Positions 11,113 to 54,387 of a stretch of 64,000 nt of DNA are shown here, in pieces (within the stretch, counting starts at the first letter, position 1; each line of letters begins with the position of its first letter). Origin of the DNA: a virus; the IMG/VR virus record IMGVR_UViG_3300031951_021456, positions 183,933 through 247,932 of that record; one strand, given 5' to 3'. A program made the position numbers and the translations under genes. The notes below the pieces were generated by a model. It was not told the DNA's origin and ran no database searches. It saw only the letters and a program-made list of their open reading frames with translations.

Positions 11113-11598
11113 TTAAGTTTTTGATGAATTTTTATGGTATGATGGGTAATTTTTATTAAACCAGTCTTCAAAAAGAGATGTTGCTTTTTCTCTGGCTTCA
11201 TCTATTGAATTTGCCTTTAAACATACACTAAACCAATCTTCTGAATCTTTATAAATTTCATTTAATTTTTGACCACTATTAAGATAATTCCAAACTGTTA
11301 ATCCGCTTATTTGTCGTGCACATAAAAATTCATTAAGTTTTTGTAGATCTTTTTCTCTAATGAATGCTCTAAAATGCAGATCATCTTTATTAAAGGTTTC
11401 TGGTATAGTTGTATCGTTTATTGGCGCTTTAGTAATTTCAAATTTATGAATTGGACATGAAACAAAATCTCTCCATTTTTCTGCAGATTCTAAATCAAAG
11501 AAGAAATCAAAATCACTTATTTCAACCCAACCTTCAGCCATCGTGCTGTTAAGCAGTCCTTCACTATGAACAATATAAATGTAGTTTTGTGTGTTCAT
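11113..11598 (-). CDS. Hypothetical protein, 161 aa, tandem paralog A
   Basis: Not recognised. Clearly related to the neighbour 11601-12044: both share IYIVHSEG/IIYSVHYE at the start, DLESAEKWRDF near residue 35, QISGLTV/QISGIRV near 95, a Gly-Gln/Glu-x-L pattern, and end in AREKA..LFEDWFNKN. The pair arose by tandem duplication and has diverged widely. Confidence 0.72.
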   Translation of the reverse strand: MNTQNYIYIVHSEGLLNSTMAEGWVEISDFDFFFDLESAEKWRDFVSCPIHKFEITKAPINDTTIPETFNKDDLHFRAFIREKDLQKLNEFLCARQISGLTVWNYLNSGQKLNEIYKDSEDWFSVCLKANSIDEAREKATSLFEDWFNKNYPSYHKNSSKT

Positions 11599-22830: not shown

Positions 22831-23503
22831 AACAATTGAAATTCTTAGTAATTTCTCTTCTATTAATAACTCAATTATCATTTCTCCAGGAAGCGTAATT
22901 AAAACAATTAATTCTGAACGAAATGTTTTTGCAAAAGCAACAGTTCAAGAAACATTTCCTCGTGATATTCCAATCTATGAATTAAGAGAGTTTCTCAATA
23001 TCTTTAAAATTCATAAAGATGCTGATGTTGATTTTTCAGATGAACAATATATTCTAGTTCAACATAATCGCACTCGCATGAAGTTTTATTATGCAGATTT
23101 ATATTCTCTCTCTAAAAATTTAAATCTTCCTGACAGAGATTATGTACTTGATGATGTCGTTCTGAGTATTAATCTAGAATCTGAACAAATTGAAAGAGTA
23201 AGAAAAGCTGCAAATTATTACAGTCTTAATGATCTATCTTTGACTGGGGCTGAAGGAAGAATTGAGTTGCTAGTTCATAATAAAGAAGATTCAACCTCAA
23301 AGTCTTATAATGTTGAGATTGGTGAAACTGAAAATCAGTTTTGTTTCAATCTTATTGAAAAAAACATTAAGATTCTTTCGGGATCTTATATGCTTGAAAT
23401 TGCTAGAGTTAATGATAGTAATTTTGCAGCTAGATTCATCAATCAAAATCAAGAGCTTGAATATTTTATCGCTACAGAGCCCGATAGTTCTTATGACGAT
23501 TAA
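22814..23503 (+). CDS. 45: gp45 sliding clamp
   Basis: Trimeric DNA polymerase processivity clamp; in T4 it also activates late transcription with gp55 and gp33. 229 aa (T4: 228). Starts MKLSPETIEILSNFSSINNSIII and shows the paired two-domain beta pattern including VFAKATVQETFPRDIPIYEL and the second-domain LNLPDRDYVLDDVVLSI. First of the clamp and loader genes, but here separated from gp44 by three members of the NWKxVLNFW paralog family, an arrangement not seen in T4. Confidence 0.93.
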   Translation: MKLSPETIEILSNFSSINNSIIISPGSVIKTINSERNVFAKATVQETFPRDIPIYELREFLNIFKIHKDADVDFSDEQYILVQHNRTRMKFYYADLYSLSKNLNLPDRDYVLDDVVLSINLESEQIERVRKAANYYSLNDLSLTGAEGRIELLVHNKEDSTSKSYNVEIGETENQFCFNLIEKNIKILSGSYMLEIARVNDSNFAARFINQNQELEYFIATEPDSSYDD

Positions 23504-23858
23504 GATTTCCAAGACACATCAAAAATTTGCATATCGCTTAAAAGACCAAACTGCTCTAGAATACCCTGAACGTTTTCTAGGACCCAATTGGAAGAATGTA
23601 TTGAACTTTTGGTTTTATTTGGATACTTTGAGTGTTGAAGATTTTGAGATAGTTTATGATCGTTATTGGGATTTGGATGATCTGAGTGCCATAAAGAATC
23701 TTGCTTGGAAAGCTGTTAAAGATACTATAGAATATTATAATGCAAATGAAGCTTGGTGTGCTACTGCTGGTATTGCTACACGTTGCGCGACTTGTGAACT
23801 CATTGGCTCACACAATCTTAAGTCTTTGAATTTTCTTCCCTTGTTTTTGAATTTATGA
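23493..23858 (+). CDS. NWKxVLNFW paralog family, copy 2 of 11 (121 aa)
   Basis: Unknown function. Starts MTIKISKTHQKFAYRLKDQ, core FLGPNWKNVLNFWFYLDTLS at residues 32-51, variable middle rich in Trp/Asp, end CELIGSHNLKSLNFLPLFLN. ATG 23493 overlaps the gp45 stop by 11 bases and the next copy begins in its stop codon. Small, acidic to neutral, no signal peptide, no catalytic motif. Confidence 0.85.
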   Translation: MTIKISKTHQKFAYRLKDQTALEYPERFLGPNWKNVLNFWFYLDTLSVEDFEIVYDRYWDLDDLSAIKNLAWKAVKDTIEYYNANEAWCATAGIATRCATCELIGSHNLKSLNFLPLFLNL

Positions 23859-26872: not shown

Positions 26873-27294
26873 GTGAATTGAACAAAGATGGATACATTAA
26901 TTGGGATTCATCCATGATGATTGAAGTGACACTTGATCAACCAGATACATTTTTGGTTGTTAAAGAAACACTTCAGCGTGTTGGAATTTGTAGTAAGCAT
27001 GAAAAGAAACTCTTTCAGAGTGCACATATTCTCCACAAATCTGGAAAATATTATATCGTTTCTTATAAAGAGTTATTTGCCCTTGATGGAAAGTATTGTA
27101 CTTTAACTCAATCTGATTTACAGAGACGTAATAGAATTGCAAAGCTTTTAAGTGATTGGGGCCTTATTACAATTGTTAATCCTGAACAAATTACAGATAT
27201 GGCTCCTTTGAGTCTTATTAAAGTTCTTGCATATAAAGATCGCCAAGATTATGAACTTATTACTAAGTACACAATTGGTGGAAAACGTAAGTGA
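26869..27294 (+). CDS. regA: RegA translational repressor
   Basis: RNA-binding protein that represses translation of early mRNAs by covering their start regions. Aligns with T4 RegA: MIEVTLDQPDTFLVVKETLQ, RVGICSKHEKKLFQSAHILH, KYYIVSYKELFALDGK, RRNRIAKLLSDWGLITIV and the end KYTIGG. 141 aa against T4's 122, with a 16-residue N-terminal extension; the internal Met at MMIEV would give the T4-like length. Five paralog-family genes follow directly, the first starting with GTG inside the regA stop. Confidence 0.93.
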   Translation: MSELNKDGYINWDSSMMIEVTLDQPDTFLVVKETLQRVGICSKHEKKLFQSAHILHKSGKYYIVSYKELFALDGKYCTLTQSDLQRRNRIAKLLSDWGLITIVNPEQITDMAPLSLIKVLAYKDRQDYELITKYTIGGKRK

Positions 27295-27773
27295 AAATCT
27301 CGAGGTCACATAGACGCTTTGCACTTTGTTTAGAAGATCAAACTGCTCTAGAATATCCTGAGGATTTTTTAGGACCTAATTGGAAGGATGTACTGAACTT
27401 CTGGATTTATTTGGATACTTTAAGTGAGGAACAGATAAAAATTGTTATAGAGAGTTTTAATGTAGTATGTCCAGTTGAATATACTGCTTATTATGGTTTC
27501 CTTGTGCATTCTGACTATAATGGTTTTCAAGGTGATGCTATGAATGCTGCTCAAAAAACATCTAATTTTTTTATTGAAGCTTCTGCATCAGCAGTTTGTA
27601 GCTCTTCTATAGCTGTTGCTACAGATACTAATAACCTTTACATAAGCTCTATAGACTATATAAAATCTGGCAACTGGGCTGCAGGTCGTGCAACCTATGA
27701 ACTAATCGGTTCACACTTTCTCCTAGATAACAACAAACCATTAACCTTTTTTCCATTGTTTTTAAATTTGTGA
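27291..27773 (+). CDS. NWKxVLNFW paralog family, copy 5 of 11 (160 aa)
   Basis: Unknown function. GTG start overlapping the regA stop. N terminus VKISRSHRRFALCLEDQTAL, core FLGPNWKDVLNFWIYLDTLS, the longest variable middle among the typical copies (about 75 residues, Ser/Ala/Tyr-rich), end ATYELIGSH then TFFPLFLNL. The first 60 bases are nearly identical to those of copy 6, suggesting recent duplication or gene conversion. Confidence 0.86.
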   Translation: MKISRSHRRFALCLEDQTALEYPEDFLGPNWKDVLNFWIYLDTLSEEQIKIVIESFNVVCPVEYTAYYGFLVHSDYNGFQGDAMNAAQKTSNFFIEASASAVCSSSIAVATDTNNLYISSIDYIKSGNWAAGRATYELIGSHFLLDNNKPLTFFPLFLNL

Positions 27774-28129
27774 AAATCTCGAGGGCACATAGACGCTTTG
27801 CACTTTCTTTAGAGGATCAAACTGCTCTAGAATACCCTGAACGTTTTCTAGGACCTAATTGGAAGAATGTACTGAACTTCTGGATTTATTTGGATGATTT
27901 AAGTGTTGATAAACTTTCTATAATTTATGCACATTATCATGATTTGAGAGACGTGCATACATTAAGGAGTCTTGCAGTGAAAGCTGCTGTAGATACTATA
28001 GGTGGTGAATATAAAACTGCAGCCTGGTGTGCCACTACTAATTCTATTGGGGTTTTGGCAATTTACGAACTCATTGGCTCACATAATCTTGAGACCTTGG
28101 CATTTCTTCCTTTGTTTATAAATCCATGA
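27770..28129 (+). CDS. NWKxVLNFW paralog family, copy 6 of 11 (119 aa)
   Basis: Unknown function. GTG start in the preceding stop. Same N terminus as copy 5; short middle with the piece VDTIGGEYKTAAW, which recurs in copy 11 at 53 kb although the surrounding middle differs. Ends IYELIGSHNLETLAFLPLF. Confidence 0.86.
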   Translation: MKISRAHRRFALSLEDQTALEYPERFLGPNWKNVLNFWIYLDDLSVDKLSIIYAHYHDLRDVHTLRSLAVKAAVDTIGGEYKTAAWCATTNSIGVLAIYELIGSHNLETLAFLPLFINP

Positions 28130-28563
28130 AAATCTCTAAAACCCATCAACGATTTGCAGACCGTTTAAGAAACCAAAGAGCCTTAGAACATCTAGAAGAG
28201 TTTCTAGGACCTAATTGGAAGGATGTCTTGAACTTTTGGCTTTATTTGGATACTTTAAGTTATGATCAGTGGAAGAGTATTATTGATGCTTATTGTTCTT
28301 TAAGTCACAATGAACGCCAGCTTGCTCGTCGGGCTTCCTGTGTTGCTGCCCGAGCTGTTGCTGCTAGTTATGCTGCTGGTGATGCTGGTTTTTATGCTGC
28401 TGGTGATGCTGGTTTTTATGCTGCTGGTGATGCTGGTTTTTATGCTGCTGGTGATGCTGGTTTTTATGTTGCTGGTTATGCAACTTATGAACTAATGGGT
28501 TCACACATACTTAAATCTCAAGGTAAATCTTTAGTCTCTCTTCCACTGTTTTTAAATGTATGA
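28126..28563 (+). CDS. NWKxVLNFW paralog family, copy 7 of 11, with AAGDAGFY repeats (145 aa)
   Basis: Unknown function. Standard N-terminal core (FLGPNWKDVLNFWLYLDTLS) and C-terminal ATYELMGSHILKSQGKSL. The middle holds four perfect 8-residue repeats AAGDAGFY encoded by a 24-bp tandem repeat (28372-28467) plus a degenerate fifth. Repeat number could change by slippage without shifting the frame. Confidence 0.86.
   Translation: MKISKTHQRFADRLRNQRALEHLEEFLGPNWKDVLNFWLYLDTLSYDQWKSIIDAYCSLSHNERQLARRASCVAARAVAASYAAGDAGFYAAGDAGFYAAGDAGFYAAGDAGFYVAGYATYELMGSHILKSQGKSLVSLPLFLNV
28372..28467 (+). repeat. 24-bp tandem repeat, 4 copies
   Basis: Four consecutive identical 24-base units (start GCTGCTGGTGATGC) in the variable region of paralog copy 7, followed by a partial, mutated unit. 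In frame. Confidence 0.95.
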
Positions 28564-28979
28564 AAATCTCTAATACACACAAAGAATTTGCTGACCTCTT
28601 GAATAACCCAAGAGCCTTAGAATATCCTGAGGATTTTTTAGGCCCTAATTGGAAGGATGTCTTGAACTTCTGGATTTATTTGGATACTTTAAGTGATGAT
28701 CAGTGGAGTATTATTGAATCTCTCCACGTAGAACTTGGTTACCCTAAATGGAATGAAGGTAATTTAAATGGAAGACAAGAATATTGGCATGTAGTTGCAA
28801 ATAGTGCTTACAAAACAATTAGAGAATATGCAGGCTATGCTGCTCTTGCAGCATCTGGTGATTATCATTGGACGGCTGCTTCTGATGCAACTTATGAACT
28901 TATCGGTTCTCATAAACTTAAAGAACAAGGAAAACCCCTAACCTTTCTCCCACTTTTTAATTATCAACCATCTCTTTAA
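28560..28979 (+). CDS. NWKxVLNFW paralog family, copy 8 of 11 (139 aa)
   Basis: Unknown function. MKISNTHKEFADLLNNPRAL, core FLGPNWKDVLNFWIYLDTLS, middle with EGNLNGRQEYW and AGYAALAASGDYHW, end ATYELIGSHKLKEQGKPLTF then LPLFNY. ATGA overlap with copy 7; 10-base gap to copy 9. Confidence 0.86.
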   Translation: MKISNTHKEFADLLNNPRALEYPEDFLGPNWKDVLNFWIYLDTLSDDQWSIIESLHVELGYPKWNEGNLNGRQEYWHVVANSAYKTIREYAGYAALAASGDYHWTAASDATYELIGSHKLKEQGKPLTFLPLFNYQPSL

Positions 28980-51925: not shown

Positions 51926-52387
51926 ATGCAATTTAACAAAACTTTTTCACTTCTTTTTGCTAGTGCTCTTCTGTTTACACCAGTTGAAGCAACTGCAGTT
52001 TCTTCCCCAAATTATGAAATCTTTGAGACCACAAATTCTCAAATGAATACTGAAAAATGGGGACTAGAGAACTATCACAATCAACGAAAAGTTGCCAATG
52101 TTTATACTGGAACTGCAAGTTGGTATGGTCCTGGTTTTTATGGTAATAGAACCGCGAATGGTGAAGTTTATCGCCCAGGAACATATACAATTGCCCATAG
52201 GTATTTACGATTTGGGACAAGAGTTCGTGTCACTAATTTAAACAATGGCCGAAGTGCCATAGCTAGAGTGAACGATCGTGGTCCATATGTTGGCGGAAGA
52301 ATTGTTGATTTGGGTCATGGCATTGCAAGAGATCTTGGAGTAATTTCAAGTGGTCTTGCTCATGTTAGACTTGAGGTTCTTGATTGA
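51926..52387 (+). CDS. RlpA-like secreted lytic transglycosylase
   Basis: Cell-wall enzyme or wall-binding protein. Signal peptide MQFNKTFSLLFASALLFTPV (cleavage after VEATA), then a double-psi beta-barrel with GTASWYGPGFYGNRTANGE, AHRYLRFGTRVRVTN and the catalytic-type VNDRGPYVGGRIVDLGHG. No SPOR domain. ATG 51926 is chosen: the upstream in-frame ATG 51887 would place a charged peptide before the signal and translate the structured leader. Forms with the C39-like protein at 53262 a plausible lysis or wall-remodelling cassette. Confidence 0.88.
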   Translation: MQFNKTFSLLFASALLFTPVEATAVSSPNYEIFETTNSQMNTEKWGLENYHNQRKVANVYTGTASWYGPGFYGNRTANGEVYRPGTYTIAHRYLRFGTRVRVTNLNNGRSAIARVNDRGPYVGGRIVDLGHGIARDLGVISSGLAHVRLEVLD

Positions 52388-52407
52388 AAGAAGTGATTTA
52401 GTAATGT

Positions 52408-52435
52408 TGGGGCAATTAGGTGCCCCATTTTTAAT
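52408..52435 (+). terminator. Intrinsic terminator after rlpA
   Basis: TGGGGCA, loop ATTAGG, TGCCCCA, then TTTTTAATT. A strong 7-bp GC stem. Confidence 0.8.
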
Positions 52436-52454
52436 TATTCATTTTATTTTCATA

Positions 52455-52853
52455 ATGATTATTTCTAAAATTCATCAGGATCTGGCTACATCTACATCCT
52501 CTACAATATTAGAGTGTCCAGAAGGATTTCTTGGACCCAATTGGAAGAATGTACTGAACTTTTGGATTTATTTGGATACTTTAAATTCTGACCAATTGAA
52601 GACTGTTGGGTGTAGGTATATAAAATCTTATCCCACACTTAGTTCAATTGAAAAATATTATTGGGCTGATACACTTTCTATAGAAGGCGATAAAGTATCA
52701 TTGGCTTCATTTATTGCTGGATGTAATATTTCTGATAGAGCAGGTGGTTATGCTGCTGATTCCGTGTTATCCGCAACCCGCGAGCTTTTCTATTCCTATC
52801 ATTTAGGCGGAGAAAAGTCTTTTGTATTTCTTCCATTGTTTCTAAATCCATGA
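52455..52853 (+). CDS. NWKxVLNFW paralog family, copy 10 of 11 (132 aa)
   Basis: Unknown function. Start ATG 52455 (MIISKIHQDLATSTSSTIL), core FLGPNWKNVLNFWIYLDTLN, middle with YYWADTLSIEGDKVSLASF, end ATRELFYSYHLGGEKSFVF then LPLFLNP, where ELIGSH is altered to ELFYSYH. Follows the rlpA terminator. Confidence 0.84.
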   Translation: MIISKIHQDLATSTSSTILECPEGFLGPNWKNVLNFWIYLDTLNSDQLKTVGCRYIKSYPTLSSIEKYYWADTLSIEGDKVSLASFIAGCNISDRAGGYAADSVLSATRELFYSYHLGGEKSFVFLPLFLNP

Positions 52854-53236
52854 AAATTTCTGAATCCCATCAATGTTTTGCAGATCATTTAGATGATCAA
52901 ACTGCTCTAGAATATCCTGAACGTTTTCTTGGACCTAATTGGAAAGATGTATTGAATTTCTGGATTTATTTGGACACTTTAAGTGATGGAGATTTTAGGT
53001 TAATTGTAGAGCGTTGTCGGGCCTTAGATTTAGATGTAGGGGCTAGAGTTTTTGATGAATACTCTGCTCGTTCGGCCGCTGCTGTAGATACTATAGGTGG
53101 TGAATATAAGACTGCAGCTTGGTATGCCCATCCTACATTATTAGGAGCTTGTGCAACCCTTGAACTCATTGGCTCCCATAAAATTCTAGAACAAAATAAA
53201 CCATTATCATTTCTATTGACACATCTCAATCTCTAA
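52850..53236 (+). CDS. NWKxVLNFW paralog family, copy 11 of 11 (128 aa)
   Basis: Unknown function. MKISESHQCFADHLDDQTAL, core FLGPNWKDVLNFWIYLDTLS, middle with VDTIGGEYKTAAW shared with copy 6, end LELIGSHKILEQNKPLSFLL. ATGA overlap with copy 10, so this distant pair keeps the same coupled layout as the arrays at 23.5 and 27.3 kb. Confidence 0.86.
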   Translation: MKISESHQCFADHLDDQTALEYPERFLGPNWKDVLNFWIYLDTLSDGDFRLIVERCRALDLDVGARVFDEYSARSAAAVDTIGGEYKTAAWYAHPTLLGACATLELIGSHKILEQNKPLSFLLTHLNL

Positions 53237-53261: not shown

Positions 53262-53948
53262 ATGAGAGTAGATTTAAATAATTTTTTCAAGTATTATGAT
53301 GACAAAAACCCAAAGCATCGCGCCGCAGTTGATGATTTTGAAAGATTGTTAATTGAAAAGTGTCCAGAATTATTGGAAGACTATGCAAACTGGATTAAAA
53401 TTTATAGAACATCAGAAGCTTCTGATATTATTAATATTCCTTGGTATCCTCAAACTGATAATTATAGACTTCCTGATAGCACTTGCAATTCTTCAGCTTG
53501 TGCAATGTGCCTTGAATATCTTAAGCCTGGTTCATTACCTGCAGGACCAAAAGGTGATGATGCTTATTTGAGAAAAGTTCTAGCTTTAGGTGCTTCCACA
53601 GATCATACCATTCAGACGATAGTTTTAGAGTCTTATGGAGTTAAATCCAACTTTTATTATAATCTAGGCTTTGATGATTTAGATAGAGAACTTGCTGCAG
53701 GAAGACCAATTGTTATTGGATTTCTACATAGAGGTTCTGCTAGTAGTCCTACAGGTGGCCACATGATTTGTGTAATTGGTAAAAATGCTTCAGGGGATTA
53801 TTGGGTTAGAGATCCTTATGGTAGTTTTTATGATGGTTATAGTGGTCCTGTATCAAATGGTAGACAAGTTGTATATTCTAGAAAAATTCTTGAGAATAGG
53901 TGGACTGTAAAACATCCTAAAGACGGTTGGGGGAGAATTTTTCAGTGA
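53262..53948 (+). CDS. C39-like peptidase domain protein, probable wall hydrolase
   Basis: Papain-like C39 family. Catalytic layout visible: INIPWYPQTDNYRLPDSTCN with nucleophile-type Cys at STCNSSACAMCLEYL (near residue 80), His in PTGGHMICVIGKN near 170, Asp in YWVRDPYGSFYDGY near 183. About 55 helical residues precede it; no signal peptide is visible. Such domains serve as peptidoglycan endopeptidases in phage lysins. Proximity to RlpA suggests a lysis role; substrate not determined. Confidence 0.78.
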   Translation: MRVDLNNFFKYYDDKNPKHRAAVDDFERLLIEKCPELLEDYANWIKIYRTSEASDIINIPWYPQTDNYRLPDSTCNSSACAMCLEYLKPGSLPAGPKGDDAYLRKVLALGASTDHTIQTIVLESYGVKSNFYYNLGFDDLDRELAAGRPIVIGFLHRGSASSPTGGHMICVIGKNASGDYWVRDPYGSFYDGYSGPVSNGRQVVYSRKILENRWTVKHPKDGWGRIFQ

Positions 53949-54005
53949 CGGTCTTTAAACTGGCATATGACTTTCCTGTTCTGCTTGGTTTGTGTTATTC
54001 TTAAT
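53947..54005 (+). repeat. 59-bp direct repeat (promoter), copy 1
   Basis: Identical to 54078-54136 and contains a complete CTGGC-class promoter. The first bases overlap the stop of the C39-like gene. Confidence 0.95.
53960..54001 (+). promoter_or_regulatory. CTGGC-class promoter of the small RNA
   Basis: CTGGCATATG box at 53960, extended -10 TGTTATTCT with TATTCT 53996-54001. Predicted +1 at 54008, the first base of a perfect hairpin. Confidence 0.8.
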
Positions 54006-54007
54006 TT

Positions 54008-54076
54008 GTCGGTAGGTGGCGCCACCTTCCCGACTTTTGCATAAGGTGGACTGAGCCCTTCGGGGCTCTTTCTTTT
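54008..54076 (+). ncRNA. Candidate phage small RNA, 69 nt
   Basis: Begins at the predicted +1 with hairpin GTCGG..AGGTGGC/GCCACCT..CCGAC (54008-54034) and ends with the UUCG-loop terminator (54053-54076). No ATG or useful reading frame is present. G+C is much higher than in neighbouring DNA. The exact fit of promoter start, hairpin and terminator makes a stable free RNA likely; target unknown. Confidence 0.7.
54053..54076 (+). terminator. Intrinsic terminator with UUCG loop
   Basis: GAGCCC, loop TTCG, GGGCTC, then TTTCTTTT. Textbook structure between the two copies of the promoter. Confidence 0.92.
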
Positions 54077-54077
54077 A

Positions 54078-54136
54078 GACGGTCTTTAAACTGGCATATG
54101 ACTTTCCTGTTCTGCTTGGTTTGTGTTATTCTTAAT
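54078..54136 (+). repeat. 59-bp direct repeat (promoter), copy 2
   Basis: Perfect second copy of 53947-54005, starting two bases after the small-RNA terminator. Confidence 0.95.
54091..54132 (+). promoter_or_regulatory. CTGGC-class promoter, second copy
   Basis: CTGGCATATG at 54091, TATTCT 54127-54132, +1 near 54139, where the RNA again starts with a hairpin (GTGGTTGG/CCGACTAC, 54139-54158). Reads into 54181. Confidence 0.8.
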
Positions 54137-54180
54137 AGGTGGTTGGCAAACCGACTACAAGCTGTTTTTGAATTTTAAAG

Positions 54181-54387
54181 ATGATCTTCATTCAACGATT
54201 TTTTACTTGGCTACTTGCTAGTTTGCTCATGTTTCCATTGGCTTTGCTTGTAACTGTAGGATCTTTTTGTCCTATTATTGTCTATGGACTTGATGATGGA
54301 GGTTCTACTACTCTTACAACTTTTTTACCTTTTATAGCTATTTTACTTTGGCATAGTGCGATTTACTTGGTACTTAAAACTAAGTAA
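54181..54387 (+). CDS. Small membrane protein, 68 aa
   Basis: Two hydrophobic helices (about 8-34 and 45-64) with a short Gly/Ser/Thr loop and a basic end, N terminus FIQRFFTW. Size and topology fit a class II holin, and it lies just after RlpA and the C39-like protein, but no holin signature proves it. Confidence 0.65.
   Translation: MIFIQRFFTWLLASLLMFPLALLVTVGSFCPIIVYGLDDGGSTTLTTFLPFIAILLWHSAIYLVLKTK

What the first reader, a model, noticed from the sequence alone, without database searches (positions are those of the whole stretch)
53947..54158. Duplicated 59-bp promoter producing a 69-nt two-hairpin RNA
Two perfect 59-bp copies of the same promoter flank a short unit. The first copy's predicted +1 (54008) coincides with the first base of a perfect GTCGG...CCGAC hairpin, and the RNA ends at a textbook UUCG-loop terminator (54053-54076). 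There is no coding frame. The second copy then drives the membrane-protein gene. This looks like a dedicated phage small-RNA gene created by promoter duplication, adjacent to lysis-type genes.
Basis: partly seen in the sequence, partly recalled or inferred. Interest (0 to 1): 0.72.

Follow-up and report, generated by a model that had tools for sequence, protein, structure and literature searches.

The report
Doubled cyanophage promoter, possible small RNA
A virus of cyanobacteria carries two identical copies of one of its standard promoters, with only a short hairpin-and-terminator stretch between them, so the first copy may make a small RNA of about 69 letters; the promoter type is real and widespread, but nothing yet shows that this RNA does anything.

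Summary
A perfect 59-bp direct repeat (53947-54005, 54078-54136) brackets a GC-rich non-coding stretch with a 5' hairpin and an intrinsic terminator (54008-54076). The repeat is very probably a real promoter: it belongs to a class recurring across this 248-kb phage record and other cyanophages (box AACTGGCAYA, about 29 bp, then a TANNNT -10; 18 matches against 0 for the reversed control in this record). Predicted starts fall on the first base of a hairpin in both copies (54008, 54139). A terminated RNA of about 69 nt from copy A is the most likely product; copy B would drive a 68-aa membrane-type protein.

A 'dedicated small-RNA gene' is not shown. The unit occurs only in this phage and two contigs identical to it, so conservation cannot be tested; no target signal was found and no transcript data exist. 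The terminator-promoter arrangement resembles the PeSL cassettes of T4-type phages. Copy A begins inside the endolysin stop codon, where 48 of 80 relatives carry a likely frameshift site leading into a lysozyme domain not found in this record. The unit may be a recombination product with a by-product RNA. New member of a known kind; moderate interest.

The parts
53262..53948 (+). upstream gene: C39-like endolysin; its stop codon overlaps the first bases of promoter copy A
   Evidence: PHROG endolysin family and Pfam Peptidase_C39_2; sequence
53947..54005 (+). promoter copy A: box AACTGGCATA 53958-53967, -10 TATTCT 53996-54001
   Evidence: perfect repeat; class member
54008..54076 (+). predicted 69-nt non-coding transcript from copy A
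   Evidence: start predicted from the -10, end from the terminator; not measured
54008..54034 (+). 5' hairpin of the predicted small RNA
   Evidence: fold; -14.9 kcal/mol in the 5' test
54053..54076 (+). intrinsic terminator with UUCG loop and T-rich tail, abutting copy B
54078..54136 (+). promoter copy B: box AACTGGCATA 54089-54098, -10 TATTCT 54127-54132
   Evidence: perfect repeat; class member
54139..54158 (+). 5' hairpin of the predicted mRNA from copy B
54181..54387 (+). 68-aa ORF with two hydrophobic stretches by eye, no known family
   Evidence: no PHROG or Pfam match; relatives only in two identical contigs

Best explanation
The 59-bp repeat is a complete cyanophage promoter of a phage-wide class: an upstream box (consensus GaCACTTgaaGAACTGGCACA), probably read by an activator or a modified host polymerase, and a sigma-70-type -10 about 29 bp further on. 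The whole module was copied once, at a recombination junction directly behind the endolysin gene. Copy A now transcribes a short, hairpin-capped, terminated non-coding RNA of about 69 nt (54008-54076). Copy B starts the mRNA of a 68-aa membrane-type protein, whose 5' end also begins with a hairpin. The terminator abutting copy B makes a PeSL-like terminator-promoter cassette that insulates the gene from upstream transcription. Shown: the sequence, the promoter class and its fixed spacing, the predicted structures, and the restriction to this phage in the collections searched. Inferred: that both copies fire, that the RNA ends at 54076, that the 5' hairpins protect the RNAs from 5'-end-dependent decay, and that the unit arose by module duplication. 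No regulatory target is proposed.
For: Box in the genome record: 14 exact and 70 in all with at most 1 mismatch, against 15 for the reversed pattern. A TANNNT starts 28-31 bp after the box at 14 of 14 exact sites. Two-part pattern: 18 matches against 0 reversed. The pattern is in 5 of 6 named cyanophages: S-SRM01 12 (control 3), S-PM2 9 (0), Syn9 5 (0), DSL-LC03 3 (0), S-SZBM1 2 (0), S-CREM1 0. In IMG/VR loci, of 173 distinct boxes that were not the search seed, 125 have TANNNT at 27-31 bp; offset bins of 5 bp outside 25-34 hold 5-28. In the stretches of S-PM2 and S-SRM01 that I read, 10 of 12 predicted promoters have an annotated CDS start 22-34 nt after the -10. Identity of the two copies runs through the spacer, which differs between other sites, and the downstream flanks do not align better than shuffles. 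Structures. Within the sampled class this locus is unusual: no other site of 261 has an orphan terminator unit, and 3 of 248 IMG/VR sites have a 5' hairpin as stable as the weaker one here.
Against: No transcript, start or end has been measured. The -10s (TATTCT) are poor, no -35 is recognisable, and the generic scan lists neither copy. No relatives of the unit outside one population, so selection on the RNA cannot be tested. In this genome the only terminator directly upstream of a class promoter is this one (1 of 16), so a general cassette habit is not seen here; in other phages the stem-loop lies inside the promoter spacer instead (41 of 254 against 2.4 in shuffles). S-CREM1 has no match of the class. 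Some pattern matches in named phages are doubtful: Syn9 148757-148800 overlaps the start of annotated gp183, and S-PM2 2200-2245 lies in annotated S-PM2p007.
Confidence: 0.6

Rival explanations
1. Recombination scar: two PeSL-like terminator-promoter modules were brought together, or the gene between them was lost. The short RNA is only a by-product and has no function.
For: Copy A starts inside the endolysin stop codon; 48 of 80 relatives have a slippery site and a lysozyme frame there, and this record has no PF00959 match. The terminator abuts copy B. Other promoter pairs in the record share box plus spacer sequence. The unit is confined to one population.
Against: A residue of a lost gene would hardly be 56.5% G+C in a 32% genome with a stable hairpin at the predicted +1 of both copies. 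No remnant of a gene was recognised.
Confidence: 0.35
2. Functional trans-acting small RNA of the phage that binds host or phage RNA, or a host RNA-binding protein, soon after infection.
For: Own promoter and terminator, no long frame, structured and GC-rich. The unpaired linker could present a pairing region (fold).
Against: Pairing with 124 predicted start regions of the window and with the genome by the linker complement (10 hits, one of them the unit itself, against 11 in the control) is no better than chance. No Rfam family. Host targets were not tested.
Confidence: 0.25
3. Expression tuning of the membrane-protein gene only: doubled promoters raise the local polymerase load, and the terminator shields copy B from endolysin transcription. 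The RNA itself is irrelevant.
For: The terminator lies 1 bp before copy B; copy B leads straight into the 68-aa ORF.
Against: A promoter whose transcripts end before the second one does not add mRNA to the gene. The 5' hairpin of the first unit is not needed for this.
Confidence: 0.2

Closest known systems
PeSL cassettes (promoter-early stem-loops) of T4-type phages: Arbiol 2010 and Comeau 2014, contents recalled, neither held; mentioned in PMC4503421, passages seen
   Same: terminator stem-loop next to an early-type promoter, short, intergenic, at a place where relatives differ in gene content; identical copies could recombine
   Different: the promoter is the cyanophage box/-10 type without a recognisable -35; copy A has no terminator in front of it; the two copies enclose no gene; exchange and minicircles were not tested
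Early-gene regulatory element of T4-like cyanophages (Doron 2016, Syn9; recalled, not held)
   Same: recalled as a phage-wide element in front of early genes; the box found here sits before small ORFs in S-PM2 and S-SRM01
   Different: I could not read that motif, so its identity with this box is unverified, and so is early timing
Non-coding RNAs of cyanophages (CfrI, PhotoRC-II, wcaG, glutamine riboswitch, abiF; PMC9964418, passages seen)
   Same: short non-coding RNA in a T4-like cyanophage
   Different: that paper predicts its RNAs by Rfam families; this unit matches no Rfam family at gathering score

Membership tests
Cyanophage box/-10 promoter class (defined here) | AACTGKCAYA box with TANNNT 27-31 bp downstream | tested here: met
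   both copies, spacing 28; class established
Cyanophage box/-10 promoter class (defined here) | upstream extension GACACTT | tested here: inconclusive
   copies read GACGGTCTTTAA, a partial match
Cyanophage box/-10 promoter class (defined here) | gene start about 25 nt after the -10 | tested here: not met
   copy A has no gene; copy B has ATG 49 nt after the -10; compare S-SRM01 and S-PM2
PeSL cassette (definition recalled) | terminator stem-loop adjoining an early-type promoter | tested here: met
   terminator ends 54076, copy B starts 54078; early timing itself not tested
PeSL cassette (definition recalled) | many copies in hyperplastic regions | tested here: inconclusive
   promoters recur, but a terminator directly upstream is seen at 1 of 16 sites in this record
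PeSL cassette (definition recalled) | recombination between copies, minicircles | not testable with these tools
   needs reads or DNA
Phage small-RNA gene | own promoter and terminator, no coding frame | tested here: met
   by prediction only
Phage small-RNA gene | conservation or covariation in relatives | tested here: inconclusive
   two contigs only, 100% identical; none in genome contigs
Phage small-RNA gene | detected transcript and a target | not testable with these tools
   no expression data; prediction against phage starts negative
Sigma-54 promoter (consensus recalled) | TGGCAC-N5-TTGCW with the -12 GC | tested here: not met
   copies read TGGCATATGACTTTCC; bases after the box vary across the class
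Cyanobacterial Pho box | CTTA-N7-CTTA | tested here: not met
   consensus from PMC3037559 (passages); by inspection absent in both copies. PhoB binding itself untested

The most novel reading that the evidence does not exclude
A phage-specific, 5'-hairpin-capped small RNA made in bulk from a duplicated phage promoter and acting in trans, for example by occupying host RNase E or other 5'-end decay factors or by pairing with host mRNAs, with the neighbouring membrane-protein mRNA wearing the same kind of 5' cap.
Probability: 0.2. Interest if true: 0.65.

Novelty: new member of a known kind. Interest (0 to 1): 0.36.

Why it matters
It is a compact case of a phage promoter module copied whole so as to leave a transcription unit without a gene, one route by which phage small RNAs could be born. 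The same work outlines a box/-10 promoter class, often with a terminator inside its spacer, that recurs in T4-like cyanophages and could be used to map their transcription units.

Tried and rejected
Sigma-54 promoter: the -12 element is missing. Pho box: consensus absent by inspection; PhoB binding untested. Rfam family: none at gathering score at this locus; three matches below it up to E 5 (best rli40, E 0.18, 14.7 bits against gathering 100). tRNA remnant: ARAGORN finds only the two other tRNAs. Pairing of the unit with phage start regions and with the next gene's leader: no better than shuffles. Common origin of the two leaders: local alignments no better than shuffles (635 and 621 of 1000 as good). 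A 5' hairpin as a general feature of the class: 10 of 248 against 3-10 in shuffles, so no. Host origin of the hairpin: no match in genome contigs. Orphan units in other phages: 8 of 261 sites have a terminator within 120 nt of the -10, two of them at this locus; the six others lie past a start codon (L187, L219 at 1298, L258) or directly before a gene (L208, L219 at 4263, L242). Twelve tandem promoter pairs closer than 400 bp were found; I read two (L235 and L213), neither like this one; ten were not read.

Full report
What is there. The window is bases 183,933-247,932 of an unnamed 248-kb virus record. Its relatives are T4-like cyanophages; the best DNA match of the locus in the phage collection is Synechococcus phage S-SRM01. 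Behind the C39-like endolysin gene (53262-53948) lie two perfect 59-bp copies 131 bp apart. Between them are a hairpin (54008-54034) and an intrinsic terminator (54053-54076). After copy B come a second hairpin (54139-54158) and a 68-aa ORF (54181-54387) with two hydrophobic stretches by eye, no family, and relatives only in two contigs identical to the window.

Is it more than chance? The 59-bp exact repeat clearly is (about 4e-24 expected). The 69-nt stretch folds better than 199 of 200 shuffles, and its G+C (56.5%) is reached by 235 of 63,932 windows of that length. Part of that fold is the terminator itself.

The repeat is a promoter. AACTGGCAYA occurs 14 times exactly in the record and 70 times with up to one mismatch, against 15 for the reversed pattern. 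Each of the 14 exact sites has a TANNNT 28-31 bp further on. The joined pattern gives 18 against 0. Named cyanophages have it too, 5 of 6 tested; S-CREM1 has none. In S-SRM01, 7 of the 8 sites inside the stretch I read have an annotated CDS start 22-34 nt after the -10; the eighth (86129) has none nearby. In S-PM2, 3 of the 4 sites inside the stretch read have one at 23-26 nt; the fourth (2200) lies in S-PM2p007. The one Syn9 site I looked at overlaps the start of annotated gp183, so it may be chance or a misplaced start. A scan of IMG/VR stopped at 120 stretches. They hold 316 boxes, 266 with the -10, against 2 and 0 for the reversed box. Leaving out the seed matches, 125 of 173 distinct boxes have it, while 5-bp offset bins outside 25-34 hold 5-28. 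The consensus is GaCACTTgaaGAACTGGCACA, 29-30 bp, TATAAT (its sites include the seeds).

The terminator inside the promoter. In the wider class the spacer between box and -10 often holds a stem of 6 bp or more (114 of 253 against 26.5 in shuffles). With a T-run the count is 41 of 254 against 2.4. One such site in S-PM2 (11362-11405) coincides with the 'potential stem loop' at 11369-11391 that PMC4503421 discusses under PeSLs (passages seen); that paper judged PeSLs too sparse in S-PM2 to explain its gene gain. In this record none of 16 sites has a terminator in the spacer, and only copy B has one directly upstream.

How the unit most likely works. From the -10 of copy A transcription would start near 54008, at the first base of the hairpin, and end near 54076. 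From copy B it would start near 54139, again at the first base of a hairpin. This is unusual: of 248 IMG/VR sites 10 show a 5' hairpin at -6 kcal/mol or better, no more than shuffles (3-10), and 3 reach -10.7; here the two are -14.9 and -10.7. A 5'-terminal stem is known in other bacteria to slow 5'-end-dependent decay (recalled), so stable short RNAs are plausible. That is inference.

How it arose. The identity of the copies includes the spacer, which differs between other sites. It stops near the promoter's ends; the sequences after it do not align better than shuffles. So the module was copied whole and recently, or is kept identical by gene conversion. Copy A begins inside the endolysin stop codon. 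In 48 of 80 relatives the endolysin gene ends there with A-AAA-AAG and an open frame at -1 that reads as a lysozyme-type domain by eye, while this record has no PF00959 match. A recombination that put promoter modules in place of the lysozyme part is the simplest history. The record may be incomplete, so this is inference.

Small-RNA gene or scar? For a small RNA: own promoter, no gene, strong terminator, structure, composition. Against, or silent: it is found only in this phage in the collections searched; the two contigs are 100% identical over 8,150 and 11,241 bp and so say nothing about selection; there is no target signal in the phage, no Rfam family, and no expression data. I therefore hold that a terminated transcript is likely, and that a function for it is open.

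Literature. Searches of the held library for the box with 'cyanophage' gave no paper. The Syn9 transcriptome paper and both PeSL papers are not held, so what I say of them is recalled. The box class may therefore already be in print as the cyanophage early element.

Side result. The frameshift site of the relatives is itself notable. On 19 of the 48 sequences the stem behind the slippery site has four pairs with changes on both sides and 98.6% of cells paired. No shuffle of 500 reaches the observed value on four of the five measures; on the fifth (further pair types) 33 do. No slid version comes near. The 19 were chosen because their spacing made alignment easy; the other 29 were not aligned. 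The listings of the two paper searches on it show no title about it; I opened none of those papers for it.

Noticed in passing
L043:3670-3760, L048:2201-2297 and other relatives of window 53262-53948 (48 of 80 loci): Candidate -1 programmed ribosomal frameshift in cyanophage endolysins: A-AAA-AAG, 0-frame stop, about 5-nt spacer, 10-11 bp stem with compensatory changes (19 sequences), and a lysozyme-type domain open in the -1 frame. Six more loci (L055, L063, L067, L086, L095, L106) have AAAAAAG with a slightly later stop. In S-SRM01 gp274/gp275 overlap there. The window phage lacks it.
   Followed up: partly
120 IMG/VR stretches; S-PM2; S-SRM01: Composite cyanophage promoter with a terminator stem-loop nested between the upstream box and the -10 (41 of 254 with T-run against 2.4 in shuffles).
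   Followed up: partly
L208 near 7841 (+); L219 near 4263 and L242 near 6427 (reverse-complement coordinates): Box followed by CTAAACCGGCACAGACCCC or a near variant and a hairpin with T-run directly in front of a gene, shared by three contigs; possibly a second promoter type or a leader attenuator.
   Followed up: no
window 21724 and 22451; window 6188 and 8270 (- strand): Other promoter pairs of the class share box plus spacer sequence (24-bp exact repeat for the first pair; second pair seen), suggesting that promoter modules are copied within this genome.
   Followed up: no
window 23310-23858, 27291-28700, 52350-53236: Repeated small ORFs sharing a motif like EYPERFLGPNWKxVLNFWIYLDTLS: dispersed paralogues; the two tested have no PHROG or Pfam match.
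   Followed up: no
window 28368-28470: 24-bp tandem repeat, perfect over at least three units, probably coding.
   Followed up: no
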